Of a stretch of 29,863 bases of DNA, positions 14,038-28,842 are shown piece after piece. The stretch is from the NCBI GenBank assembly GCA_900752815.1, contig CAADWS010000106.1, positions 1 through 29,863 of the forward strand, read 5' to 3'. The first letter of the stretch is position 1. Every line of letters starts with the position of its first letter. The notes under the pieces were generated by a model, which ran no database searches, was not told where the DNA came from, and was given only the letters and a program-made list of their open reading frames with translations. The position numbers were made by a program, and so were the translations under genes. The stretch comes from Bacteroidaceae bacterium (lineage in GTDB: Bacteria; Bacteroidota; Bacteroidia; Bacteroidales; Bacteroidaceae).

Positions 14038-14133
14038 ACCCTCTCCGGCCCCGTGCCGGCACTCTCTCCCCGCCGCGCGGAAGCAGCAAGCCTCCCCGCC
14101 CCTTCAAGAATAACAAGAAAAAACAAGAATAAT

Positions 14134-15513
14134 ATGGCAGCAGAAGATAACTTTATCGTAGCTACCGTGCTCGGTTCCTCGAAAATAACCGCCGTAGCAG
14201 GCCGCAAACAGCCCGATGGCGCCATCCAGGTGCTGGCTTGCGTGCAAGAACCCTCAGACAGTTTCATCCGCAAGGGACGCATCAACAATGTGACCAAGAT
14301 GAAGCAGTGCATCATCAACATGAAGGACAAACTGGAAAAGAAACTCCAGAAGTCCATCTCACACACCTACGTCGGCATCGGCGGCATGGGCATGCACACC
14401 GTAAGCAACACCGTAGTGCGCCATTTCGACCAGAAGACCACCGTCACGCAGGAACTCGTCGACTCCATGATGGAGGAAAACAAAGACACCGCCACCCCCG
14501 ACCGTTACATCTTCGAAGTGGTGCCGCAGGACTACAAAATCGGTACGCAGAGCCAGACCGACCCCGTCGGCATCCCGGCCGAAACCATCGAAGGGCACTA
14601 CCTGAACATTGTGGCCAACTGCTGCATCCGCGAGGACGTGGACAACTGCTTCCGCAACGCCAACCTGATGATAGCCGGCCGGCCCATCACGCCGCTGACG
14701 CTTTCCGACCTGGTGCTCTCGGAGTCGGAGAAGCGCTCGGGCTGCGTCTTCGTCGACATGGGGTCGGAAACCACCTCCGTAGCCATCTACAAGAACAACC
14801 TGCTGCGCCATTTCGCCGTCATCCCCCTGGGTGGCTCCAACGTCAACCGCGACATCGCTTCCCTGCAGATTGAGGACAGCGAAGCCGAGGAACTCAAGAT
14901 GCGTTTCGGCGCGGCGCTCTATGAAGACGCCACCGAAACCCGCCAGCCCGTGGAGCTCAAGGACGGCCGCAGCGTGAAGTTCGAGGAATTTGCCGGTCTG
15001 GTCGAAGCCCGCATGGAGGAAATCATCCTCAATGTGGCCCATCAGATTGAACTGTCAAAATATGACAAGAGTCAGCTCATCGGCGGCATCATCATCACCG
15101 GCGGCGCGGCCAACATGAAGAACATGGACAAGGCCTTCGAAAAGCATACCCGCTTCGAGAAAATACGTTTCGCCACCAAGAGCGGCGTCCGCATTCCCCT
15201 GCGCACCAGCCTGAGCGACTTCAACAAGGATGGCTCCTGCAACGCAGCACTCGCCATCATAGACAAGGCGGAATTCAACTGCTGCGGCGGCGAACTGGGC
15301 AACAACACACCGGCGCTCTTCCCCGCCGAACCGGCCGCCGAACCGGTGCCCGCCGCACCGGCACCTGCCGAAGCCGACAAAAAGGCACCCAAGCAGGAGG
15401 AAGAAGAGGAAAAGCCCGCAAAGCCCAAAGGCCCCGGCATCTTCTCCAAATTCATGACCCGCATGAAAACGCTGGCCAACGACCTCGTTTCGGAAAAAGA
15501 CCAGGACAATTAA
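14134..15513 (+). CDS. ftsA: Cell division protein FtsA
   Basis: A 459-residue actin-like ATPase that tethers FtsZ to the inner membrane and recruits later division proteins. It shows the actin-fold phosphate loop FVDMGSETTSVAIY, the second block GGIIITGGAANMKN, and the FtsA-specific 1C/SHS2 region between. After about residue 390 comes an Ala/Pro/Glu/Lys linker. The last ~27 residues form the amphipathic membrane-targeting helix (PGIFSKFMTRMKTLANDL). The frame is open upstream to 14053, but those codons are unrelated to FtsA and the AT-rich patch before 14134 is the normal start context here. Two FtsZ genes follow; whether this FtsA tail binds both is an open question. Confidence 0.96.
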   Translation: MAAEDNFIVATVLGSSKITAVAGRKQPDGAIQVLACVQEPSDSFIRKGRINNVTKMKQCIINMKDKLEKKLQKSISHTYVGIGGMGMHTVSNTVVRHFDQKTTVTQELVDSMMEENKDTATPDRYIFEVVPQDYKIGTQSQTDPVGIPAETIEGHYLNIVANCCIREDVDNCFRNANLMIAGRPITPLTLSDLVLSESEKRSGCVFVDMGSETTSVAIYKNNLLRHFAVIPLGGSNVNRDIASLQIEDSEAEELKMRFGAALYEDATETRQPVELKDGRSVKFEEFAGLVEARMEEIILNVAHQIELSKYDKSQLIGGIIITGGAANMKNMDKAFEKHTRFEKIRFATKSGVRIPLRTSLSDFNKDGSCNAALAIIDKAEFNCCGGELGNNTPALFPAEPAAEPVPAAPAPAEADKKAPKQEEEEEKPAKPKGPGIFSKFMTRMKTLANDLVSEKDQDN

Positions 15514-15586: not shown

Positions 15587-16903
15587 ATGTCAGAACAGAA
15601 TAACAACCTTTTGATTGACATGGGCGTACCCTCCACCACGCCCTCCATCATTAAAGTAATCGGAGTCGGCGGTGGCGGCGGAAATGCCGTCAACCACATG
15701 TACCGCGAAGGTATCCACGACGTCAATTTCGTCATCTGCAACACCGACTCCAAGGCGCTCTGCGACTCTCCCGTTCCCGTGCGCCTGCAGCTCGGCAAGG
15801 AAGGTCTCGGCGCCGGCAACCGTCCAGCCCGTGCCCGCGAGGCTGCCGAAGAAAGCGTGGAAGACATCCGCCGCATGCTCGACGACGGCACCAAGATGGT
15901 ATTCATCACCGCCGGAATGGGCGGCGGCACCGGCACCGGCGCCGCTCCGGTCATTGCCCGCGAGGCCAAGGCGATGGGCATCCTCACCGTCGGCATCGTT
16001 ACCATCCCCTTCCTCTTCGAAGGCAACAAGAAAATCGACCAGGCGCTCGACGGCGTTGAGGAAATCTCCAAGCACGTTGACGCCCTGCTCGTCATCAACA
16101 ACGAACGCCTGCGCGAAATCTACCCCGACCTCAACGTGCTCAGCGCCTTCGAGAAAGCTGACAACACGCTCTCCGTGGCCGCACGCAGCATCGCCGAAAT
16201 CATCACCATGCACGGCATCATCAACCTCGACTTCCGCGATGTCTGCACCGTGCTCAAGGACGGCGGAGTGGCCATCATGTCCACCGGCTACGGCGACGGC
16301 GAGAACCGCGTCACCAAGGCCATCGAAGACGCCCTCCACTCCCCGCTGCTCAACAACAACGACATCTTCAACTCCCGCAAGGTGCTCCTCTCCATCTCCT
16401 TCTGCGCCGAAAAGGAAGGCGACCTGCTCATGATGGAAGAAATGAACGAGGTGCACGAATTCATGTCGAAGTTCCACGACGACGTGGAGACCAAATGGGG
16501 ACTCTCCACCGACCCCTCGCTCGAAAAGCGCGTGAAAATCACCATCCTCGCCACCGGATTCGGCATCACCAACGTGCCGGGCATGAAGGACAAGCAGCTG
16601 CAGGAAGAAGAAGCCATCCGGCAGAAGAACGCCGAGAAGATGGAGGAATATGAGGACCGCCGCGGCCAGTACTACGGTCCCGGCGACAAGAAGAGCGGAC
16701 AGAAGCGCCGCCCGCGCTCCTACCTCTTCGGGCTCAACGACCTCGACAACGAGGAAGTCATCTCCCTGCTCGAACTCACGCCCACCTACCGGCGCAGCAA
16801 GGAGCAGCTGGCCGACATCAAGAGCAAGACGACCGAAAACTATCCCATCGATTTCGGCGACCTGCCCCGTCAGGAGGGCAACATGGTCATCAGTTTCGAC
16901 TGA
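15587..16903 (+). CDS. ftsZ: Cell division protein FtsZ (first of two tandem copies)
   Basis: A 438-residue tubulin-like GTPase that forms the Z ring. All FtsZ hallmarks are intact: the first glycine-rich loop GVGGGGGNAV (residues 26-35), the signature GGGTGTG (112-118), ADNTL at the guanine site, and a complete T7 loop NLDFRD (213-218). N213, D215 and D218 match E. coli Asn207, Asp209 and Asp212. After the core there is a charged linker (about 335-380), a second conserved block LDNEEVISLLELTPTYRRSK, and a ~30-residue tail ending in ISFD that may hold the FtsA-binding peptide. It lies 73 bases after ftsA. By every criterion this is the orthodox, fully competent copy. Confidence 0.98.
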   Translation: MSEQNNNLLIDMGVPSTTPSIIKVIGVGGGGGNAVNHMYREGIHDVNFVICNTDSKALCDSPVPVRLQLGKEGLGAGNRPARAREAAEESVEDIRRMLDDGTKMVFITAGMGGGTGTGAAPVIAREAKAMGILTVGIVTIPFLFEGNKKIDQALDGVEEISKHVDALLVINNERLREIYPDLNVLSAFEKADNTLSVAARSIAEIITMHGIINLDFRDVCTVLKDGGVAIMSTGYGDGENRVTKAIEDALHSPLLNNNDIFNSRKVLLSISFCAEKEGDLLMMEEMNEVHEFMSKFHDDVETKWGLSTDPSLEKRVKITILATGFGITNVPGMKDKQLQEEEAIRQKNAEKMEEYEDRRGQYYGPGDKKSGQKRRPRSYLFGLNDLDNEEVISLLELTPTYRRSKEQLADIKSKTTENYPIDFGDLPRQEGNMVISFD

Positions 16904-16935
16904 CACCCCTCCCTTTCCCGCCGCCCAACCGCGGT

Positions 16936-16991
16936 CAAAGAGTTAAGGATGTCGCGCCGGCCATGGCCTGCAAGGCGTCTTTAACTCTTTG
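16936..16991 (+). repeat. Inverted repeat between the two ftsZ genes
   Basis: CAAAGAGTTAA (16936-16946) is repeated perfectly inverted as TTAACTCTTTG (16981-16991). The 34-base interior includes the palindrome GGCCATGGCC and can pair further, imperfectly. It lies 32 bases after the first ftsZ stop. There is no poly-T tract, so it could attenuate or process the transcript rather than end it. Confidence 0.75.
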
Positions 16992-17095
16992 TCGTCATTC
17001 CGCACCCGCCCGCGAAGCCCGCCCGCTGCCGGTGCCGCGAAGCCGTGCGGCCCCGTCGCGTCTCTCATCATCATCCCCTTCAGCACACGACAATC

Positions 17096-18289
17096 ATGGA
17101 CGATTTACTCATCAATCTGGTCAATGCCAGCCAGCCTTCCATCATCAAGGTCATCGGCGTAGGCGGTGGCGGCGGAAATGCCGTCGCCCACATGTACCGG
17201 AATGGCAACTTCGCCGATGTCAACTTCCTCGTATGCAACGCCGACGCCAAGGCACTCGAAATCTCCCCCGTGCCCGACCAGCTCCAACTGGGCAACGACG
17301 GTCTCGGGGCAGGCGGAAAGCCCGAAATCGGCCGCCAGCTCGCCGAGGAAAGCATCGACAGCATCCGCCGCGTGCTCGACCCCCACACCAAGATGCTCTT
17401 CATCACCGCCGGAATGGGCGGCGGCACCGGCACCGGCGCAGCCCCCGTCATCGCCCGCGAAGCCCGCAAGCGCGGCATTCTCACCGTGGGCATCGTCACC
17501 ATTCCCTTCCGCTTCGAAGGCATCCGCAAGATAGACAAGGCGCTCGACGGCGTCGACGCCATGGCCGCACAGGCCGACGCGCTCATCGTCATCAACAACG
17601 AGCTCCTGCGCGAGAACTATCAGAACTACTCCGTCACCGAAGGCTTCCAGCGGGCCGACGACACGCTCAGCATCGCCGTAAAAAGCATTGTCGACATCAT
17701 CACCATGCACGGCAAGATGATTCTCGACTTCCGCGATGTCTACAACACCCTGCACGACGGCGGCATTGCCGTCATGTCCACCGGCTATGCCTCCGGCGAA
17801 GGCCGCGTGGCCCGGGCCATCGCCGATGCGCTCAACTCGCCCTTCGTCTGCCGCCGCGACATCTACAAATCGCGCAAAATCCTCATGTCCATCTCCACCA
17901 GCACGGCCCACAACCTCATGATTTACGAGATGAACGACATCAACGCCTTCATGCTCAACTTCGAGGACAAATACATCGAAACCAAGTATGGGCTGGCCAC
18001 CGACGAAAGCCTCGGCGACCGCGTCAAGGTCACCCTCCTCGCCTCCGGCTTTGCCCTGCCCAACAAGGAAAAGCAGGAAACCGTCATCCACTTCAGCGAA
18101 GAGGACATCCGCCGCGTCTTCCGCCGCAAGCAGCACTACGGCAACGAAGCCGCCACGCGCCCCACGCGCCACCTGTGCCTCTTCAATACCGACGAGCTCG
18201 ACAACGACGCCCTGCTGCAGTATGTAGAGGAAACCCCCACCCAACTGCGCCGGCAGCCCGTGCCCGAACACCTCCGCACGCACAGCTGA
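17096..18289 (+). CDS. Second FtsZ paralogue with altered T7 loop and short tail
   Basis: This 397-residue protein is homologous to the upstream FtsZ along its whole length, including the LDNDALLQYVEETPT block near the end. Nucleotide binding looks intact: GVGGGGGNAV (21-30) and GGGTGTG (108-114). The T7 loop reads ILDFRD: D211 and D214 remain, but the position of E. coli Asn207 is Ile209. This loop completes the active site of the neighbouring subunit, so GTP hydrolysis may be slowed (inference). The linker is short, and the protein stops about 15 residues after the second conserved block, lacking the tail seen in the first copy. It could co-polymerise and tune the Z ring. The frame is open to 17045, but homology and the TTGNNATG-poor context favour ATG at 17096. 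It lies 192 bases after the first copy. Confidence 0.95.
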   Translation: MDDLLINLVNASQPSIIKVIGVGGGGGNAVAHMYRNGNFADVNFLVCNADAKALEISPVPDQLQLGNDGLGAGGKPEIGRQLAEESIDSIRRVLDPHTKMLFITAGMGGGTGTGAAPVIAREARKRGILTVGIVTIPFRFEGIRKIDKALDGVDAMAAQADALIVINNELLRENYQNYSVTEGFQRADDTLSIAVKSIVDIITMHGKMILDFRDVYNTLHDGGIAVMSTGYASGEGRVARAIADALNSPFVCRRDIYKSRKILMSISTSTAHNLMIYEMNDINAFMLNFEDKYIETKYGLATDESLGDRVKVTLLASGFALPNKEKQETVIHFSEEDIRRVFRRKQHYGNEAATRPTRHLCLFNTDELDNDALLQYVEETPTQLRRQPVPEHLRTHS

Positions 18290-18361: not shown

Positions 18362-18814
18362 ATGGAAATTTTCGAACAAGTCAGCAAAGACATCGTCGCC
18401 GCCATGAAGGCGAAGGACAAAGTGCGCCTGGAAGCACTCCGCAACATCAAGAAGTTCTTCATCGAAGCCAAGACCGCTCCCGGAGCCAACGATACGCTCA
18501 CCGACGAGGCCGCCCTCAAGATTCTGGCCAAGCTCGCCAAGCAGGGACGCGACACCGCCGCCCTCTACCGCGAACAGAACCGCCCCGACCTCGCAGAAGA
18601 GGAGGAAGCACAGGCCGCCGTTGCCGAAAGCTATCTGCCCCAGCCGCTCAGCGAAGCTGAACTGGAAGCAGCCCTGCGCGACATCATCGCCGAAACCGGT
18701 GCTGCTAGCCCCAAGGACATGGGCAAGGTGATGGGCGTAGCCAGCAAGCGGCTGGCCGGAAAGGCCGACGGAAAGGCCATTTCCGACAAGGTGAAACAAC
18801 TTCTGGCGCAATAA
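18362..18814 (+). CDS. yqeY: GatB/YqeY domain protein
   Basis: A 150-residue all-helical protein of the YqeY family, related to the tail domain of the GatB subunit of the Asp-tRNA/Glu-tRNA amidotransferase. It shows the family pattern: AMKAKDKVRLEALRNIK at the start, KLAKQGRDTAALYREQNRPDLAEEE cut by a conserved Arg, and a C-terminal KDMGKVMGVASKRLAGKADG block. The biochemical role of the free-standing form is not established; tRNA binding is assumed from GatB. It follows ftsZ in many Bacteroidales, so its place here marks the end of the dcw-type block. Two hairpins directly follow the stop. Confidence 0.93.
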   Translation: MEIFEQVSKDIVAAMKAKDKVRLEALRNIKKFFIEAKTAPGANDTLTDEAALKILAKLAKQGRDTAALYREQNRPDLAEEEEAQAAVAESYLPQPLSEAELEAALRDIIAETGAASPKDMGKVMGVASKRLAGKADGKAISDKVKQLLAQ

Positions 18815-20658: not shown

Positions 20659-22146
20659 TTACTTCCAGTTAGGTTCCAGATTACCGTTGGCCTCAGTGTC
20701 GTTGAGCGGGAGTTCCCATACCATCTTATAATAGAGGTCACCGCTGGGCTGTACGTTCAAGTCGACAGAACCGGGAGCCTGCACCAGGATGTTGGCCGTA
20801 AACGGCTGAGGGTTCATACGCTTTACGCCATCACCCCAACGCTTGAGACAGTCGAGACGGAAGCCTTCGCCCACCATTTCGCGTACCCATTCCTTTTTGA
20901 GCAGCTGCACGAGAGCATCACCGGTCAGATTGCCCGTTTCAAGACCGCGGTTCTGGCGGAGCGTCTTGAGCAGACTGAGCGCCGTAGCTTCGTCGCGCTG
21001 CGCCTTGAAGAGGCTGGCTTCCGCTGCAATCAGATACATTTCAGAAGTGCGGAACACCTTGCACATGTTATAGAACGAGTTCGTTTTTCCCTCACCTGCC
21101 TTGTAAAGAGCGGGGTTACCGGGGAACTTGCTGAAATAGTAGCCAGTCTCCTTCTGGTCACCGGCATTAATCATGTCCTTGGTGAAGAACACGTCCTTGC
21201 GCACGTCACCTGCCTCATACAGGTCCATCAGGCCCTGCGTGGGAAGGTAGTAGGGATTCCATGCGGACTGTGCTTCGTTGTAAGCCATGAAGATGGTACC
21301 GTAGCTGCCACCGCGCTCAGACGGAGTCATAAGGGGCTGGAAGATGATTTCAGAAGCCACATCATCCGTCCACATGGCTGCATAAGCGTCGGGAGTGGCC
21401 AGGGGATAGTCGGCAAAGAGAGAAGTCGCAGCTTCAATCGCGCCTTCGTAATCCTTCTTGTAGAGAAGCACACGAGCCTTGAGAGCCGTCAGCACATTCT
21501 TGTTGGGAGCGGTGATGTCGGTGCCTTCCATGATGAGCGTGTCGGCTGCGGCAATGTCACCAAGGATGAATTCTACCGTCTTGTCCAGCTTGGCACGGAA
21601 CGGCTTGGCATTCTCGTCCACCGTCTTCAGCAGAGGCAGACCCAGGTCGCTGGCTGCAGTAGCTTCATTGTATTCCTTGCAGTAACGGGGCAACATGTTG
21701 GCATAGGCAAAGGCACGGGCAAAGTAAGCAGCACCCTTGATGTTCTTGAGGATTTCCTTCTCCTGTGCATTCTGCGCCGGCACCTTGTCAATGTTGTCCA
21801 GAATATTGTTGGCATTGGTTACAAGGCCAAAATTGTTGGCCCACTTTCCATCGCCGTAAAACTGCGCCGTGGTGAAAGTCCAGTCGTATATTCTGTTGAG
21901 CTGAGCAACACCGAAAGCAGCGTTGAACAAGTCGGTCTGAATTTCACTCACATAATTGTGAGAACCGCCGGTCACATTGCGGAAGCTGTTGAGCAGGCCA
22001 GTATAGAATTTCTGCGCATCGCTCACCTTTTCCCATGACTTTTCGGAAGGAATTCTTCCGTCAGGGTACTGGTCCAGCTCGCAGGAAGTCGTCAGCGACA
22101 GCGCAAGCGCGGAACAGATCAATGTTTTGAATATATATTTTTTCAT
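20659..22146 (-). CDS. RagB/SusD family nutrient-binding outer membrane lipoprotein
   Basis: A 495-residue SusD-like lipoprotein that caps the SusC channel on the cell surface and binds the incoming glycan or peptide. It has a signal with lipobox LTTSC (C22), then ELDQYP, a start typical of the family. SusD-type blocks include WEKVSDAQKFYTGLL, the TPR-like helical region around AYFARAFAYANMLPRY, and RTSEMYLIAAEASLFKA in the C-terminal third. The family is unmistakable, but ligand specificity cannot be read from sequence. It follows susC by 23 bases and is certainly co-transcribed with it. Confidence 0.95.
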   Translation of the reverse strand: MKKYIFKTLICSALALSLTTSCELDQYPDGRIPSEKSWEKVSDAQKFYTGLLNSFRNVTGGSHNYVSEIQTDLFNAAFGVAQLNRIYDWTFTTAQFYGDGKWANNFGLVTNANNILDNIDKVPAQNAQEKEILKNIKGAAYFARAFAYANMLPRYCKEYNEATAASDLGLPLLKTVDENAKPFRAKLDKTVEFILGDIAAADTLIMEGTDITAPNKNVLTALKARVLLYKKDYEGAIEAATSLFADYPLATPDAYAAMWTDDVASEIIFQPLMTPSERGGSYGTIFMAYNEAQSAWNPYYLPTQGLMDLYEAGDVRKDVFFTKDMINAGDQKETGYYFSKFPGNPALYKAGEGKTNSFYNMCKVFRTSEMYLIAAEASLFKAQRDEATALSLLKTLRQNRGLETGNLTGDALVQLLKKEWVREMVGEGFRLDCLKRWGDGVKRMNPQPFTANILVQAPGSVDLNVQPSGDLYYKMVWELPLNDTEANGNLEPNWK

Positions 22147-22169
22147 TTCGATTGCTTTTAATTTTGGTA

Positions 22170-25139
22170 TCAGAATGTTACATCTACGCCCAATACGAAC
22201 TGTCGAGTAGCCGGATAAGCACCGTATTGGATGTTTGTATCAATTTCAGGATCCGCGCCCCTGTAGCCGGTTACCGTAAAGAGGTTGCGGCCGGTGAAGC
22301 TCAGGCGCACAGCCTTCATGAAGCCGGTTGCCTCCATCCACTGGGAAGGAAGGTTATAGGCCAGCGTAAGGTTCTTCATGCGGAGGAAAGAGGCATTCTC
22401 CAAGAGATGGGTATCAAACTGCGAGCTATAATTGAATCCCGGCAGCACGGCCAAATCACCCGGTTTCTTCCACATGTTCAACATGTCGCGGTCAGGATTA
22501 GCTCCATTGCTGATATTGAGCGGTTCAGTCACCCATAAGTACGAATTGTTCACCATATACTTGCCGGCAACGAAAGCAAAGTCAGTCGAAAGAGTGAAGC
22601 CCTTCCACTGTGCCGTCAGGCCAAAACCTCCCGTGTGCGGCGCAAAGCGCTTCTTGCCGGTATCCTGGTTAAGGGCATCCATGTTGCTGGCATCCTTGGT
22701 CATGGTTTCCGGATTGAACTCGTGTACCACGCCGCCCTTATGACCTTTCTTGTACCACATCGGGGCACCGTCGTTCTTGTCGACACCGGCATAAATCGGC
22801 ATGTAGTAGTTCAGGCTCTCGCCCACCTTGTAATTCATCAGATAACCGGGCATCGGCCATTCCGTCTTGCCGTAGAAGAGCTTGTCAATCTGGTTGGTGT
22901 TGTAAGCATAGTTGGCACGCACGCTCACCAGCAGGTCCTTGCGCTTGATGATGTCGTAAGAGGCAGAAAGTTCCACACCGCGGTTGCTCAACTCACCTAC
23001 ATTCATCATCTGGCTGGTGAAACCGGTGGTATAAGGAAGGGGCACTTCCATGAGCATGTCCTTGGTCTTGCGATGATAGAAGTTGAACTCAAAATTGAAG
23101 CGGCTGAAAATAGAGGCAGAGAAACCGACGTTGGTCTGAATCTGCTTTTCCCATCCCAGTTCTTCGTTGCTCGGCTGTGTCAGCACCCATCCGGCTTCAC
23201 CGTTGTACTGCGTACTACCTACCAAACCGAGACTGGCGTAATTATCGATACCGGCATTACCGGTGGAACCGACACTGACACGTACGTCGAGCGCATCGAG
23301 CCAATAGAGGTCCTGCATGAAGTTTTCGTTGCGCATATTCCACATCAAACCACCGGAGTAGAACATAGCCGAACGGTTCTTAGCACCGAATCGGGACGAC
23401 TGGTCGTTACGCACGGTGAAGTTGGCGAAATAGCGGTTCATCAACGAATAGTCCAAACGTCCGAAGAAACTCAGGAACTGATAAGCAGAAGTGCTTTCCG
23501 ACACATCGCTGATGGTGGCTTCGGTCATGTTGCTGATAGTGAGCAGACGGTCATCGGTAGAACCCTTGGCACCTGCACCGAAGGCATCAGAATTGTATTT
23601 GATACCTTCCTGACCGGCCAGCAACGTAAATTCGTGGTCATCACCGATATTGAAACGGTATTCAGCCGTATTGGTAATGGTCCACATGGAACTGCGGGAA
23701 TCGCTACGCTTGGTAGAGGCGATTCCGTTTCTACCCGGAAATTCCGCCAAAACGGAGAATTTCGAATTGGTGTTGGTTGCATAGAGACCCAACTGCGACT
23801 TGAGGGTCAAGCCCTTGATGGGGTTCAACTGCAAATAGGCATTACCGTTATAAATAATGTCATTGATTGTACCCGGCTGCAAGTCGTTCAGCCACTTGGT
23901 ATCGTAGCTACCCATGTAAAGAATTTGATGATTCTTACGGGATTCCGGATCATACGGGTCCCAATACGGAAGGAACATGGCTGCAGCAGAAGAATAGGAA
24001 CGAATATTGTTGGTTCCATTATAAGTATAACCATTGTACATACGGTCGGTATAAACAATGTTCTGGTTCACGCCAAACTTCAACCAGTCGTTCACTTGAG
24101 CATCGAGATTGGCACGTACGTTGTAACGCTGCATGTGTGACTCGTCATCCACACCCGTATTGTCGAGATAAGAACCCGAAACAAAGTAAGAGGTCTTCTG
24201 GCTGCCTCCACGAATAGAGAAATCGGTCTCATAAAGCGGGGCATCATTGCGGAAGTAGTAGTCCTGCCAGTCGGTGTTGGCACCATGTGCTTTATACTCA
24301 GCATACTGAGACGCAGTAATGATACCGTTCTCAAGTGCAAAGCTCAGATACTCTGTTGCATTCATCGGGTTACCGATGCGACGGGCCAACTGGTTCCATC
24401 CCACCTTCTGCCCAATTGTCACCTCAGCGTTGGCTTCGCCCTTGCGGCCTTTCTTCGTCACGATGTAGATAACACCGTTGGCAGCACGCGAACCGTAGAT
24501 AGAGGTAGCGGAAGCATCTTTCAGCGTGGTGATGCTCTCAATATCGCTAGAGTTCATCAAACCGAGCACAGAAGTTCCTACAGGAGTACCGTCCACTACA
24601 ACGAGGGGCTCATTGCTGGCCTCAAGCGAACCGATACCACGAATATAAAATGAGGTTGTATTTACTTCACCTACGTCACCGGTATTGTTGAATACCTGCA
24701 AGCCGGCTACCTGACCCTGCATGGCGTCGGCAATATTGGCGGTGGGCATGGCGCTGATTTTCTCGCCGTCCACCTTGCTCACGGAGCCGACAACGGTACC
24801 GATCTTACGGGCAGAACCGTAACCGATTACCACAGCTTCATCGAGCACGTTGTTGTCTTTCATCACCACCTTCATGTCGCTGGCGATGCTTACATTCTGG
24901 GTTTCATAACCGATGTAGGAGATCAAAAGACGCTTTGCCGAAGCGGGTACATCGGTCAATTTGAAGTTACCCTGGTCGTCGGTCATAGTCACCTTCTGAA
25001 CGCCTTCCACGCGAACACTGGCGCCTACCAACGGATTGCCGTCAGCATCGAGCACCTTACCTGTTACGCGCTTCTGTGCAGAAGCCACTCCTGCCGTCAT
25101 CAGCATGGCAGCTCCCAAAAGCACTAACTTTTTGTTCAT
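22170..25139 (-). CDS. SusC/RagA family TonB-linked outer membrane protein
   Basis: A 989-residue TonB-dependent transporter that imports glycans or peptides across the outer membrane together with its SusD partner. A signal peptide (cleavage after about A21) leads into a carboxypeptidase-regulatory-like domain (VTGKVLDADGNPLVGASV, about 24-105). The plug domain follows, with VIGYGSARKIGTVVGSVS, the SusC signature FYIRGIGSL, and EPLVVVDGTPV. The rest is a 22-strand beta barrel ending in the outer-membrane terminal Phe (VLGVDVTF). No anti-sigma-responsive N-terminal (STN) domain is present, so it is probably not wired to a sigma/anti-sigma pair. It heads the operon and has a good promoter about 235 bases upstream. 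Confidence 0.97.
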   Translation of the reverse strand: MNKKLVLLGAAMLMTAGVASAQKRVTGKVLDADGNPLVGASVRVEGVQKVTMTDDQGNFKLTDVPASAKRLLISYIGYETQNVSIASDMKVVMKDNNVLDEAVVIGYGSARKIGTVVGSVSKVDGEKISAMPTANIADAMQGQVAGLQVFNNTGDVGEVNTTSFYIRGIGSLEASNEPLVVVDGTPVGTSVLGLMNSSDIESITTLKDASATSIYGSRAANGVIYIVTKKGRKGEANAEVTIGQKVGWNQLARRIGNPMNATEYLSFALENGIITASQYAEYKAHGANTDWQDYYFRNDAPLYETDFSIRGGSQKTSYFVSGSYLDNTGVDDESHMQRYNVRANLDAQVNDWLKFGVNQNIVYTDRMYNGYTYNGTNNIRSYSSAAAMFLPYWDPYDPESRKNHQILYMGSYDTKWLNDLQPGTINDIIYNGNAYLQLNPIKGLTLKSQLGLYATNTNSKFSVLAEFPGRNGIASTKRSDSRSSMWTITNTAEYRFNIGDDHEFTLLAGQEGIKYNSDAFGAGAKGSTDDRLLTISNMTEATISDVSESTSAYQFLSFFGRLDYSLMNRYFANFTVRNDQSSRFGAKNRSAMFYSGGLMWNMRNENFMQDLYWLDALDVRVSVGSTGNAGIDNYASLGLVGSTQYNGEAGWVLTQPSNEELGWEKQIQTNVGFSASIFSRFNFEFNFYHRKTKDMLMEVPLPYTTGFTSQMMNVGELSNRGVELSASYDIIKRKDLLVSVRANYAYNTNQIDKLFYGKTEWPMPGYLMNYKVGESLNYYMPIYAGVDKNDGAPMWYKKGHKGGVVHEFNPETMTKDASNMDALNQDTGKKRFAPHTGGFGLTAQWKGFTLSTDFAFVAGKYMVNNSYLWVTEPLNISNGANPDRDMLNMWKKPGDLAVLPGFNYSSQFDTHLLENASFLRMKNLTLAYNLPSQWMEATGFMKAVRLSFTGRNLFTVTGYRGADPEIDTNIQYGAYPATRQFVLGVDVTF

Positions 25140-25372
25140 AATAAAACTATTAAATTAAACATATAGAATTCCGGTGGTCCGGCGCCGGCGCAGGAAGACG
25201 CTCCCATCCCTGTGCGGCGCTGCAGGGAGGACAAGTGAATATAGACATGATAGGCTTCAACATGATTGCACCCAGTTTGTGGGTTGAACAACATCTTTCC
25301 GAAACGGCCTCCAACGGTTTCCCGCGGGCTGCTCTTCGGGGCAGACGCGCCCTTCCTGCAAAACACGAAGTG
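25140..25372 (-). other. Long untranslated leader of the susC operon
   Basis: Between the promoter at 25373-25403 and the susC start lie about 230 bases with no clear gene. Inverted sequences include CCCTG/CAGGG around 25205-25240 and the palindrome GCGCCGGCGC (25182-25191) close to the start codon. A 79-codon open frame spans this leader and overlaps the susC start by 4 bases, but I see no support for translation. A leader this long could host regulation by a small RNA or RNA structure, as shown for some Bacteroides PULs (family knowledge; not shown here). Confidence 0.5.
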
Positions 25373-25403
25373 CAAAAATAGTCTTTTTATTTAAAATAAC
25401 AAA
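25373..25403 (-). promoter_or_regulatory. Bacteroidetes promoter of the susC operon
   Basis: Read on the minus strand: TTTG (25403-25400), a 19-base spacer, then TATTTTTG (25380-25373). This is an exact match to the Bacteroidetes -33/-7 pattern with ideal spacing, in an AT-rich window. Transcription should begin near 25366. Confidence 0.82.
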
Positions 25404-25732
25404 AAAATTAATTTCGAAATGCTCCTTTTTACAAATAAAACCGAATATTTTGCTCAAAAAAGGCATGTCGGATACGCATTTTTAGAGGTTTTTTACAAAT
25501 AGAACCGACAACCGGGTTCGGCCGCACTTACCGGCATTTGCAACTCTCTCCACGTCAGAAAAATGCTGCAACGGAAGCACAGCCAGCCGGTGCAATCAAA
25601 CCTCCACGACCGAACGCGGGGGAGGACCAACCGTCAGATCCGTTTCCCATAAAGAAACAGACACCCCGGAACGGACACCGGAAAAACAAGGAAAAACGAT
25701 AGCGGTTTTTCCAAAAGGAAGAGGCCCGCAGC
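25404..25732. other. Noncoding stretch between susC promoter and GH95 terminator
   Basis: There is no gene here. It is AT-rich near the promoter (to about 25500), where a regulator could bind. A perfect hairpin lies at 25690-25712 (GGAAAAAC/GTTTTTCC, 7-base loop). AACAGACACC at 25656-25665 is repeated inverted at 25790-25799, bracketing this hairpin and the terminator next to it. Confidence 0.5.
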
Positions 25733-25776
25733 GGATGCCGGTAAGGGCATGTGTCCACTGCGGGCCTTGTTTCACG
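25733..25776 (-). terminator. Terminator after the GH95 gene
   Basis: GGCCCGCAG (25733-25741) pairs with CTGCGGGCC (25768-25776), and an inner ATGCC/GGCAT pair (25745-25749, 25756-25760) extends the fold. On the minus strand it is followed by TCTTCCTTTT. It lies 65 bases past the GH95 stop. Confidence 0.8.
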
Positions 25777-25840
25777 GGCGGTGTCTGTTCGTTTCTTCCA
25801 GCCCCGTCGGGCCGTTTGTAACGGTTATTTTTATCCGGAC

Positions 25841-28306
25841 CTACGCCGGATCGGCCACAAAGCGGTTGCCGTCGAAGGTCAGGCGATAACGCTTACCGGC
25901 CTTGGTGGGAAAATCGAACGTAACGGTGCCATAGCGCAGATGGCAGGTTTCTCCCGAACCGCTGTAAACGGTAACGGAGGCCAGACGGCCGGATTTCCAT
26001 TCCAGGTCGACCCCGAAATTGCCGCGGGCACGGAGTCCGCTGATGCTGCCGGCGAGCCAGGCATCGGGCAATGCCGGCAACAGATGCAGACAGCCGGCAT
26101 GGCTCTGCAGAAGCATCTCGGTGACGCCGGCCGTGCCGCCGAAGTTTCCGTCAATCTGGAACGGCGGATGCACGTCCCACAGGTTGTCGGCCGTTCCGTT
26201 CTTGAGCAGATTGCCATAGAGCAGATAGGAACGGTTGCCGTCGTGCAACCGGGCCCACTGGTTGAGCTTCCAGCCCATGCTCCAGCCGGTGGCACCGTCG
26301 CCGCGATGGTTGAGCACCACGCGGGCGGCATCGGCCAGTTCGGGCGTAGTGAGCGGTGAGATGGTGCGGCCGGGATGAAGTCCGTAGAGATGGTTGACAT
26401 GGCGGTGACGGTCTTCGGGGTCGTCGATGTCGCGGCTCCATTCCATCAGCTGGCCGTAACGGCCGATGCGGTAAGGAGCCAGCTGTGTGAGCATCGCCTG
26501 CCAGGTTTGTGCCTCGATGGCATCGGTGTCGAGCACCTCGGCTGCGGCAATGGCGTCGAGCAGAATCTCGCGGACCACGGCGTGGGTAAAGGTAGTGCCT
26601 TCGTCAATCGGGCCGTGCTCGGGCGATGTGGAGGGAGCGGCCGTCAGTGTGCCGTCGGGCTTGCGCCAGAGGAAATCCTCACAGAACTGTGCGCAGGCCT
26701 TGATGAGCGGATAGGCTGTGCGGCGCAGGAAGTCGCGGTCGCGGGTATAGTCATAATAGTCCCACAGATGGGTGGCCAGCCACGAAGCCGCCATGGGGTT
26801 ATAGTTCCACGACATGTCGCCGCCGGCCAGCGGTGCGGTGAAGCCGAAGATATTGGCCGAAATACCGGCAGCCCATCCGCGGGCGCCCCAATAGGCCTTG
26901 GCCGTGACGCGTCCCGGCTTTTCGAGCAGACGGATGAAGTCGGTGAGCGGTTCGGCACACTCGGTGAGCGCCGTGGGCAATGCCGGCCAGTAGTTCATCT
27001 GGAGATTGATGTTGTTGTGATAGTCCACGCGCCAGGGCCCGTCCACATTATTGTGCCAGATGCCCTGCAGGTTGGCCGGCAGATTGCCGGGGCGGGAGGA
27101 GGCGATGAGGAGGTAACGGCCAAACTGGTAGTAAAGCGTTTCGAGTCCGGCGTCGGGCTTCCCTTCGCGGTAACGCTGCAGGCGTTCGTCGGTGGGCAGG
27201 TCGGCCGACGGACCGTCCAGGCGGAAGTCGACACGGCGGAACAGGGCGGCATAGTCGGCATAGTGCTCGCGGAAGAGCTTTTTCCAGCCCTTGCGGACAG
27301 CCCCCTTCATCCAGGCGGCCGTCGTTTCGTCCGGGCGCACGCCCACATAGGCCTTGGGGTCATTGAAATCGGGGTCGTAATTGGGACGGTAGTCGGTGTC
27401 GGCCGTAAGCAGGAAGACCACCTCGTCGGCGCCGTCCACCTTGAGGGCGCCGCCCCCGTTGCTAACGGTTCCGCCACGGGCATCGACGTGCAGCCGCACG
27501 ACATACTCCATACCGTTGTTGTCGAGCCGGCCACGGAAAACAAGGCCGTCGGTGCCTTCGGGTTGCAGCGTGCCTTCAGACAGCGGATTGTGCCCGTAGG
27601 TGAGGCGCAGATGCTGGCGTCCCTTCTCGCTGGCACTGAAACGGATGGCCAGGACGTTGGCCGGATAGGAAATGAACGACCGGCGCTCGTAGCGCACCCC
27701 GTCGCTGACAAAGGAGACGGTGGCCAGCGCCGAATCAACCGAAAGGGCACGGCGGTAGCCGCTGATGTGCTGGGGGTCAATGCCGGTTTCGATGCAAAGT
27801 TCGCCCAAGGTGGTATAGGAACCAAAACGGAATTCGGGCTCGCCGGTAGCCTCGTAGGGAACGGCGCTGTTGAAGTTGGAGGTCGTCAGCCGAGCGGCCT
27901 TGTCCCAGTCGCCGGCAGCAAAAGCCGCACGTATTTCGGGCAGGAAGGCAGCAGCCGGTTTGTTGACGTTCCAGTAGTGGGCAGGCCCCTTGGCCGTATT
28001 GGGTCCTCCGCGCCACAGCGTCTTCTCGTTCAGGGTGTAGCGCTCCACGGCCACCGAGCCCATCACGTTGGCACCGATGGAACCGTTGCCCAGGGGCAGC
28101 GAACGGTATTCCCATTCATGGTCGGCATTGCCGTTGAAGCCACCGGCGTCGATGGGCTTGCGGCCGTCGGCAAAACGTTCGGGATGACCGCCATACCAGG
28201 GCGAACGGCCCTTGAGCGAAGTGGGTTCGTCGAACCAGACGGTGTTTTGTGCAAAAAGCGGAAAGGCACAGCAACCGGCCAGAGCCAGTAACAGATTTTT
28301 TTTCAT
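25841..28306 (-). CDS. Glycoside hydrolase family 95 (alpha-L-fucosidase-like)
   Basis: An 821-residue secreted enzyme of GH95, whose members remove terminal alpha-L-fucose (mostly alpha-1,2) or alpha-L-galactose from host or plant glycans by inversion. The order matches the family: an N-terminal beta-sandwich with [11 protein letters not shown] and [11 protein letters not shown], then an (alpha/alpha)6 barrel with [32 protein letters not shown] and [11 protein letters not shown]432 and N434 match Asn421 and Asn423 of Bifidobacterium AfcA, E563 in STSPEHG matches its acid Glu566, and D719 sits where Asp766 is expected. The signal peptide probably ends at FAQ; an LAGC lipobox at C12 is possible but early. 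ATG at 28312 is an alternative start. The frame extends to 28624 but overlaps the HIT gene and its terminator. Substrate (fucose or galactose) is not decidable here. Confidence 0.93.
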
Positions 28307-28379
28307 AGTCATGACAGATACTGAATAACAGGGTAAATAAATGAGGTGAAAGCGGTCCGGCTGCGGCCGGAGGGGGAAG

Positions 28380-28435
28380 AAAAAGCCGGGGCTCCACAGC
28401 CTCCGCCACAAGCGGAAGGGCTGTGAGGCACCGGC
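28380..28435 (-). terminator. Terminator after the HIT-family gene
   Basis: On the minus strand a long stem, GCCGG..CACAGCC with GGCTGTG..CCGGC (outer ends 28435 and 28385), closes on TCCGC/GCGGA and a CACAA loop with a few mismatches and one bulge. TTTTT follows at 28384-28380. It starts 9 bases after the HIT stop, so the GH95 gene needs its own promoter, which I could not identify. Confidence 0.78.
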
Positions 28436-28443
28436 CGTCAAGG

Positions 28444-28842
28444 TCAGCCCTCGGTGAAGGCGGCGAGGATGCGGGCGGCAATGTCCTGCATTTCCTCGGG
28501 CGCCAGCTGGAGCTTGGGTTTGCGGAAATCCATGTCGCCTTCGTTCTGAAGGGGAATGAGGTGGATGTGGGCGTGGTTCACCTCCAGGCCGAGCACGGCC
28601 ATGCCCACCTTGGTGCAGGGGCAAACCGTTCTGACGGCAGCTGCCACGCGCTTGGCAAAGACGGCCATGGCTGCGAGGGTGTCGTCGTCAAGGTCGAACA
28701 GATAGTCCACTTCCTGCTTGGGCACGACGAGCGTGTGGCCCTTGGCCACGGGATTGATGTCGAGAAAAGCGTAGAAACGGTCGTCCTCGGCACACTTGTA
28801 GGAAGGAATCTCGCCGGCAATGATTCTACTGAACAGCGTCAT
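28444..28842 (-). CDS. HIT-family nucleotide-binding hydrolase
   Basis: A 132-residue cytoplasmic histidine-triad protein of the HINT/Hit type. Such enzymes hydrolyse nucleoside phosphoramidates or dinucleoside polyphosphates. The fold markers run in order: [17 protein letters not shown] at the start, [18 protein letters not shown], and the triad [11 protein letters not shown] with H90, H92 and H94. The frame is open to 28929, but that extension is unlike HIT proteins and overlaps greA by 4 bases, so ATG at 28842 is chosen. It lies 83 bases after greA, a pairing common in Bacteroidales, and ends at a strong terminator. Confidence 0.95.

What the first reader, a model, noticed from the sequence alone, without database searches (positions are those of the whole stretch)
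15587..18289. Two complete FtsZ genes in tandem inside the division cluster
Most bacteria have one ftsZ. Here two full-length, clearly paralogous copies lie in the same strand and operon context between ftsA and yqeY, both with intact GTP-binding signatures. The second has diverged in just the parts that set catalysis and partner binding. Tandem retention in the cell-wall cluster suggests a working pair: one canonical filament former and one modulator.
Basis: partly seen in the sequence, partly recalled or inferred. Interest (0 to 1): 0.75.

Follow-up and report, generated by a model that had tools for sequence, protein, structure and literature searches.

The report
Second FtsZ gene beside the first
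Bacteria of the Alloprevotella group carry, next to their normal cell-division gene ftsZ, an old and still functional-looking second ftsZ, so their division ring may be built with two different FtsZ proteins instead of the usual one.

Summary
Two intact, 55% identical ftsZ genes (A, 15587-16903; B, 17096-18289) lie between ftsA and yqeY. B is not a recent accident. In a sample of 399 family genomes (389 with a match), I found 23 with a B gene. All 23 fall into one clade with window B (SH-aLRT 100; 100/100 for the 17 rows of a careful tree), and yqeY follows B in all 23. Named carriers are Alloprevotella tannerae and Alloprevotella sp. oral taxon 473. B evolves faster than A but under purifying selection (dN/dS 0.04-0.35 against 0.03-0.19 for A in the same six pairs). 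B keeps the FtsZ fold, the nucleotide loops, both catalytic aspartates (39 of 39) and a C-terminal-peptide-like block (36 of 39); the T7 asparagine is lost in 17 of 39, window included. Best guess: B co-assembles with A and modulates ring turnover; untested. Two further kinds of second FtsZ occur in the family, one with a tail like FtsA's membrane helix. My capped searches of an open library showed no report of these; one survey places extra bacterial ftsZ copies outside this cluster.

The parts
14053..15513 (+). ftsA (mechanical start GTG 14053; an internal ATG at 14131 looks likelier), ending in an FtsA-type C-terminal helix
   Evidence: Pfam FtsA 71 bits, SHS2_FTSA 34.4 bits; start and tail judged by eye from the sequence
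15587..16903 (+). ftsZ-A, canonical FtsZ, 438 aa
   Evidence: Pfam Tubulin + FtsZ_C; TIGR00065 325.2 bits, above cut-off 295.2; tree
16904..17095 (+). A-B intergenic stretch, 192 bp, with a strong hairpin at about 16935-16992 (perfect 11-base outer arms 16936-16946 / 16981-16991, no T run after it)
   Evidence: RNA fold of 16925-17005, z-score -5.41, 0 of 200 shuffles fold as well
17096..18289 (+). ftsZ-B, second FtsZ, 397 aa, T7 loop GKMILDFRD (Asn replaced by Ile), C-terminal-peptide-like block kept, terminal IxF-like motif lost
   Evidence: Pfam; TIGR00065 292.4 bits, just under cut-off 295.2; clade of 39 B rows, 100/100 in the careful tree; AF2 model mean pLDDT 70.5, the 50 Foldseek hits listed are all FtsZ, TM by target 0.82-0.91
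18362..18814 (+). yqeY, the gene that follows B in all 23 B loci found
   Evidence: Pfam YqeY 145.3 bits; synteny

Best explanation
The window shows a two-FtsZ division module of the Alloprevotella lineage (Bacteroidales). One ancestral ftsZ was duplicated in tandem in the common ancestor of this lineage. Copy A stayed the canonical filament former. Copy B was kept in most of the lineage as a faster-evolving FtsZ. SHOWN by sequence: one clade of B, conserved place, purifying selection, predicted FtsZ fold, intact nucleotide loops, both catalytic Asp, and a C-terminal-peptide-like block. INFERRED: B binds GTP, enters A filaments through the conserved longitudinal faces, reaches the ring partly through its own FtsA-binding peptide, and modulates filament turnover. 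In the window's sub-clade, loss of the T7 asparagine should slow hydrolysis of the GTP that B's T7 loop covers, so B would act as a slow-turnover, stabilising subunit.
For: Two intact genes. B forms one clade: SH-aLRT 100 with 39 rows; 100/100 and in 100% of 200 bootstrap trees with 17 B rows of 63, nested with the A copies (100/99). 23 of the 399 sampled family genomes carry B; yqeY follows it in 23 of 23. dN/dS of B is 0.345, 0.260, 0.043, 0.128, 0.252, 0.260 against A 0.106, 0.035, 0.033, 0.054, 0.188, 0.095 in the same six genome pairs. Catalytic Asp pair 39 of 39, C-terminal-peptide-like block 36 of 39. A-B gaps run from -8 to 225 bp in 22 of the 23 loci measured, window included, and one is 803 bp (starts chosen by script), so co-transcription is likely. 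Predicted FtsZ fold. The T7 motif GXXNXD is described as important for GTP hydrolysis (PMC8456036, passages).
Against: No evidence of co-assembly, expression or localisation. The T7 Asn is kept in 22 of 39 B proteins, so slowed hydrolysis cannot be the shared function of the clade. B is missing between ftsZ-A and yqeY in two A-lineage genomes, G133 and G400, so it is not indispensable. The window's 192-bp gap holds a strong hairpin that could lower or uncouple B expression. A separate B filament is not excluded. B branches are long, and the exact point where B leaves the canonical tree is weakly supported (94/37).
Confidence: 0.55

Rival explanations
1. B is a full FtsZ that forms its own filaments for a separate job (another division mode, cell shape, a stage of growth) and does not mix with A.
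For: Long B branches and B-specific T3, H7-end and core-end residues; 22 of 39 B proteins keep a complete T7 loop and could self-assemble; Haloferax volcanii has two FtsZ homologues (start of the abstract of PMC8187382 in search listings; that their roles differ is recalled).
Against: B stays in the division cluster next to a canonical ftsZ in 22 of 23 genomes and keeps a block like A's FtsA-binding end in 36 of 39, which points to the same ring.
Confidence: 0.25
2. B is a spare or condition-specific FtsZ with the same function as A, kept by dosage or subfunctionalisation.
For: Fold, nucleotide loops and catalytic Asp are kept; an intergenic hairpin could give separate expression.
Confidence: 0.15
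3. Recent accidental duplication, decaying copy, or an assembly artefact.
For: Tandem repeats can be mis-assembled; no genome is held for the window to check it.
Against: 55% identity between the copies, one B clade across genomes, dN/dS well under 1, and pairs on contigs of 2.76 and 2.92 Mb.
Confidence: 0.02

Closest known systems
Bacterial FtsZ (TIGR00065; PF00091 + PF12327)
   Same: Predicted fold, GTP loops, tubulin signature, catalytic Asp pair, C-terminal-peptide-like block, dcw-cluster place
   Different: Second gene in the same cluster; T7 Asn lost in the window and in 17 of 39 B rows in all; window B lacks the terminal IxF-like motif; 292.4 bits, just under the NCBIfam cut-off of 295.2
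Chloroplast FtsZ1/FtsZ2 and red-algal FtsZA/FtsZB
   Same: Two FtsZ paralogues in one ring; they co-assemble (abstract of PMC5821325) and one gives stability while the other enhances dynamics (abstract of PMC12343686); abstract starts seen in the listings
   Different: Independent lineage; here tandem genes in one bacterial cluster, and co-assembly is not shown
Archaeal dual FtsZ (Haloferax FtsZ1/FtsZ2; Odinarchaeota)
   Same: Two FtsZ paralogues in one cell (titles and abstract starts of PMC8187382 and PMC12583498, listings)
   Different: Another domain of life and, as recalled, a much older duplication; SepF as partner is in the titles of PMC8187382 and PMC8178401
Bacteria with a second ftsZ (Bipolaricaulota, named in PMC9871819; recalled: Magnetospirillum and Agrobacterium extra FtsZs)
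   Same: A second ftsZ in a bacterium
   Different: PMC9871819 (passages) says that in the few bacteria with two copies the additional one lies outside the dcw cluster; here it lies inside

Membership tests
FtsZ family | GTPase domain plus FtsZ_C domain | tested here: met
   Both proteins above Pfam gathering scores
FtsZ family | Tubulin signature GGGTGTG and T1 glycine loop | tested here: met
   Present in window A and B and in the 34 B rows printed; region retention
FtsZ family | T7 loop GxxNxDxxD | tested here: inconclusive
   A meets it. Window B keeps both Asp but has Ile for Asn; across B, Asp pair 39 of 39, Asn 22 of 39
FtsZ family | NCBIfam TIGR00065 equivalog score of at least 295.2 | tested here: inconclusive
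   A 325.2; window B 292.4 (just under); the B of L117 307.7 (two B proteins tested)
FtsZ family | C-terminal peptide for FtsA-type partners | tested here: met
   A loose PT-x(1,2)-R pattern in the last 100 residues: 28 of 28 A, 36 of 39 B, 41 of 42 other canonical, 9 of 9 C, 4 of 28 U; binding itself not tested
FtsZ family | GTP-dependent polymerisation | not testable with these tools
   needs protein
Conserved two-FtsZ system | Second copies form one clade across species | tested here: met
   39 rows, SH-aLRT 100; 17 rows 100/100
Conserved two-FtsZ system | Both copies under purifying selection | tested here: met
   dN/dS at most 0.345 in all pairs with finite dS
Conserved two-FtsZ system | The two proteins act in one ring | not testable with these tools
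   inferred from gene place and C-terminal block only
FtsZl1 / TubZ / CetZ side families | Lack of the FtsZ_C domain or degenerate GTPase motifs (definition partly from PMC9871819 passages, partly recalled) | tested here: not met
   B has FtsZ_C above cut-off and intact GTP loops

The most novel reading that the evidence does not exclude
The Prevotella-Alloprevotella family has moved to a two-FtsZ divisome more than once. There is a tandem downstream copy (B, as in the window), a tandem upstream copy (C), and an unlinked copy (U) that swapped the FtsA-binding peptide for its own FtsA-like membrane helix; the kinds rarely co-occur in one genome. In the window's lineage, A and B form mixed filaments in which B, with a weakened T7 loop, sets filament lifetime: a bacterial counterpart of chloroplast FtsZ1/FtsZ2.
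Probability: 0.3. Interest if true: 0.85.

Novelty: new variant of a known kind. Interest (0 to 1): 0.62.

Why it matters
Bacterial Z rings are taken to contain one FtsZ (abstract starts of PMC8142252 and PMC11285052 say so, as seen in the listings). A conserved pair inside the division cluster of named oral bacteria would give a simple genetic system for asking why some lineages, such as chloroplasts and archaea, divide with two FtsZs, and how a second subunit tunes filament turnover. It also warns that annotation and FtsZ-inhibitor work in this family may meet two targets.

Tried and rejected
Recent duplication or artefact: rejected by divergence, tree and dN/dS. Degenerate GTPase: rejected, both Asp kept in 39 of 39. 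B carried by viruses: the viral-contig scan confirmed no relative among 105 pattern matches. One common origin of all second copies: the best tree keeps B, C and U apart, but AU tests reject B+U (p 0.031) and B+C+U (p 0.047) only weakly, and B+C is not rejected (p 0.152); the groups were named after the tree was seen, so these p values flatter the split, and a shared origin of B and C stays open. B and U as mutually exclusive: 22 of 23 B genomes show no third FtsZ and one (G298) has an unlinked one; 10 of 11 C genomes show no third, one (G116) a fragment. With unlinked copies in about 60 of 399 genomes this is not significant (about 0.13 by a binomial estimate done by hand). Two genome-contig scans: the first confirmed no relative among 15 pattern matches; the second (two peptide patterns) gave 36 loci, each with one ftsZ match, 41-53% identical to B. 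P0008 (573 aa) looked like an A-B fusion but is a canonical-type FtsZ with an internal repeat. The first C-terminal helix measure (11 of 28 U, 0 of 28 A, 1 of 39 B, 0 of 9 C, 4 of 42 others above the bar) left out tails with proline and was replaced by the shuffle test; the window's own FtsA tail reaches only p 0.06 in that test.

Rows chosen or left out; 111 rows, with 15 of the 36 loci L001-L036 and 24 of the proteins; 146 rows after leaving out six partial second-batch rows (L106, L109 twice, L110, L123 first copy, L121 second copy) and seven rows close to others (P0045, L055, L085, P0012, L009, both of L076); 63 of those 146, for time. Of 31 unlinked copies fetched, 28 entered the tree; about half of the unlinked copies counted were never fetched and are assigned by place and identity alone.

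Full report
WHAT IS THERE. Window 15587-16903 and 17096-18289 (+ strand) are two intact genes for FtsZ proteins of 438 and 397 aa. Both pass Pfam cut-offs for the GTPase and C-terminal domains. They are 55% identical over 404 columns. The order is murG, murC, an ftsQ-like ORF (named by place), ftsA, ftsZ-A, ftsZ-B, yqeY. The true B start is most likely ATG 17096, because most aligned homologues begin there. An AlphaFold2 model of B (21-row alignment, mean pLDDT 70.5, a moderate model) finds FtsZ structures in all 50 Foldseek rows listed (TM by target 0.82-0.91, 34-42% identity).

IS IT A RECENT ACCIDENT? No. The protein search with B (7,999 scored, best 120 listed) gave 44 hits above a clear score step: 42 at 59-71% identity, plus P0008 and P0045, two long canonical-type proteins. 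The rows below the step are at 57% or less; they are canonical FtsZ together with more distant B proteins such as P0110 and P0119 (placed). I sampled 399 genomes of the family of a named relative (L001, uncultured Prevotellaceae RUG174); 389 had a match. I resolved those with two or more matches by fetching 40 loci, by further searches and by 40 more loci. 23 genomes carry a B-type gene. In 22 of them it lies directly behind a canonical ftsZ (in one of these the canonical gene is cut by the contig end). In the 23rd (G048) it lies away from ftsA, still followed by yqeY. yqeY follows B in 23 of 23.

TREE. In a 146-row tree B is one clade of 39 rows (SH-aLRT 100) inside a 69-row clade (96) that also holds the canonical A copies of the same genomes and two single copies. 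In a careful 63-row tree B is 100/100 and is recovered in 100% of 200 bootstrap trees; A, B and the two single copies form a 100/99 clade, while the point at which B branches inside it is weak (94/37) and A is one group in 69% of bootstrap trees. B branches are long, which the program flags for several rows. Of the 16 sampled genomes whose canonical copy groups with window A, 14 carry B. G133 and G400 do not: there yqeY follows ftsZ-A at once. G133 also has a weak partial FtsZ-like match with a stop inside on another contig, fetched but not examined. Sampling was biased towards two-match genomes. A check with A of 70 genomes chosen by hand found an A-like FtsZ of 80% or more only in G133 and G400, the next being 74%; this check would miss single-copy relatives of the more distant A copies (L091-type).

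WHO. The window's organism is not known. Window A is 86% identical to FtsZs named Alloprevotella sp. (P0187, P0188) and 85% to one named Bacteroidaceae bacterium (P0137). P0251, named Alloprevotella sp. oral taxon 473, is identical to the B of L118 and lies on a contig of the same length, 447,361. P0313, P0325 and P0337, named A. tannerae, are 97-99% identical to the B of L097. The 120 best hits listed for a B profile are each closest to a B row.

SELECTION. NG86 estimates for the six genome pairs with finite dS in both genes: B 0.345, 0.260, 0.043, 0.128, 0.252, 0.260; A 0.106, 0.035, 0.033, 0.054, 0.188, 0.095. B is above A in six of six, though one pair is nearly equal, and all are far below 1. 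Several dS values exceed 1 (up to 2.28) and are rough; one A comparison rests on 225 codons. In three other pairs dS was saturated in at least one gene and no comparison was made.

WHERE B DIFFERS. Of the positions at least 90% conserved in 70 canonical FtsZs, 11 are kept in under half of the 39 B proteins. They include a T3-loop Asn that is Gly in 39 of 39, an Ala that is Val in 34 and a Glu that is Asp in 21 at the end of helix H7, and a core-end Thr that is Ser in 39 of 39. Catalytic Asp209 and Asp212 (E. coli numbering) are kept in 39 of 39. Asn207 is Asn in 22, Ile in 11 (window included), Gly 3, Tyr 1, His 1, Leu 1. Retention of canonical-conserved positions in B: T1 99%, T4 96%, T7 92%, C-terminal domain 84%, T3 75%. 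The C-terminal-peptide-like block (a loose pattern) is present in 36 of 39 B and 28 of 28 A; a terminal IxF-like motif in 20 of 28 A but 14 of 39 B, and not in window B. So B is a complete FtsZ with altered parts, not a broken one. That the GXXNXD loop matters for hydrolysis is from PMC8456036 (passages); what Asn to Ile does is inference.

HOW IT MAY WORK. A and B are probably made from one operon: gaps run from an 8-base overlap to 225 bp in 22 of the 23 loci measured, window included, and one is 803 bp (starts chosen by script). The window's gap of 192 bp holds a hairpin with z -5.4 that may set the A:B ratio. The simplest mechanism is co-assembly with slower or altered turnover of filaments containing B. 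Not shown: expression, interaction, localisation.

COMPARISON. Pairs of FtsZ are known from chloroplasts and archaea. For bacteria, PMC9871819 (passages) states that in the few with two copies the additional copy is outside the dcw cluster. Eight library searches (open-access papers only, lists capped, for example 20 of 46, 40 of 74, 20 of 100) listed no paper that by title or abstract start treats a second ftsZ in Prevotella, Alloprevotella or Bacteroidales. Passages of PMC2875224 name a Bacteroides species among its FtsZ-like side families, and passages of PMC4164004 did not bear on this.

WIDER PICTURE. Two other kinds of second FtsZ turned up. C: an upstream tandem copy, in 11 genomes by layout; 8 of them form one clade (SH-aLRT 100), while those of L078 (with its near-copy L076) and L120 stand apart. 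U: unlinked copies in 60 of 399 genomes by my count (24, 22 and 13, and G298; a lower bound, since one search scored at most four candidates a genome). 28 intact U copies of 31 fetched were put in the tree and form one clade (100). Most U proteins lack the C-terminal peptide pattern (24 of 28) and end in a stretch that looks like FtsA's helix: amphipathic by shuffle test at p 0.05 or less in 15 of 28 U, against 0 of 28 A, 2 of 39 B, 0 of 9 C and 4 of 42 others; the window's FtsA tail itself scores p 0.06. AU tests reject B+U (p 0.031) and B+C+U (p 0.047) as one clade only weakly, and do not reject B+C (p 0.152).

Noticed in passing
L098-L105, L107, L108, L111-L116, L124-L127, L129-L136 (unlinked ftsZ copies): An unlinked second FtsZ (clade U, 28 intact copies in the tree, support 100) that mostly lacks the FtsA-binding peptide pattern and ends in a short, often amphipathic stretch like FtsA's membrane anchor: possibly a self-anchoring FtsZ.
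   Followed up: partly
L057, L058, L060, L063, L065, L068, L069, L076, L078, L120, L121: Divergent ftsZ directly upstream of the canonical one (type C order); in L068, L076 and L078 yqeY lies between ftsA and the two ftsZ genes.
   Followed up: partly
window 16935-16992: Strong hairpin between ftsZ-A and ftsZ-B (11-base perfect outer arms, z -5.4) without a following T run; not a classical terminator.
   Followed up: partly
C-termini of canonical FtsZ of this family (for example window 16880-16903): A terminal [IVL]x[FY] motif after the C-terminal peptide in 20 of 28 A and 31 of 42 other canonical rows, and in 0 of 28 U; function unknown to me.
   Followed up: no
G012, G017, G030, G046, G056, G098, G163, G165, G187, G219, G243, G244, G272, G287, G290, G361, G390 and others: Weak second matches (about 25-36% identity, ORFs mostly about 170-410 aa) that may be FtsZ-like side families; not identified.
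   Followed up: no
G133:C233:1083-1442 (in L137): In one of the two A-lineage genomes without B, a weak partial FtsZ-like match (28%, one stop inside); fetched but not examined.
   Followed up: no
P0008: A 573-aa FtsZ with an internally repeated GTPase stretch on a 6.4-kb contig; possibly an assembly artefact.
   Followed up: no
G120, G212, G248: Two canonical-type ftsZ matches on separate contigs, probably mixed or duplicated bins.
   Followed up: no
window 20659-28624: A minus-strand SusD-like and TonB-receptor (SusC-like) gene pair with a GH95 glycoside hydrolase gene, a typical polysaccharide locus, beyond the division cluster.
   Followed up: no
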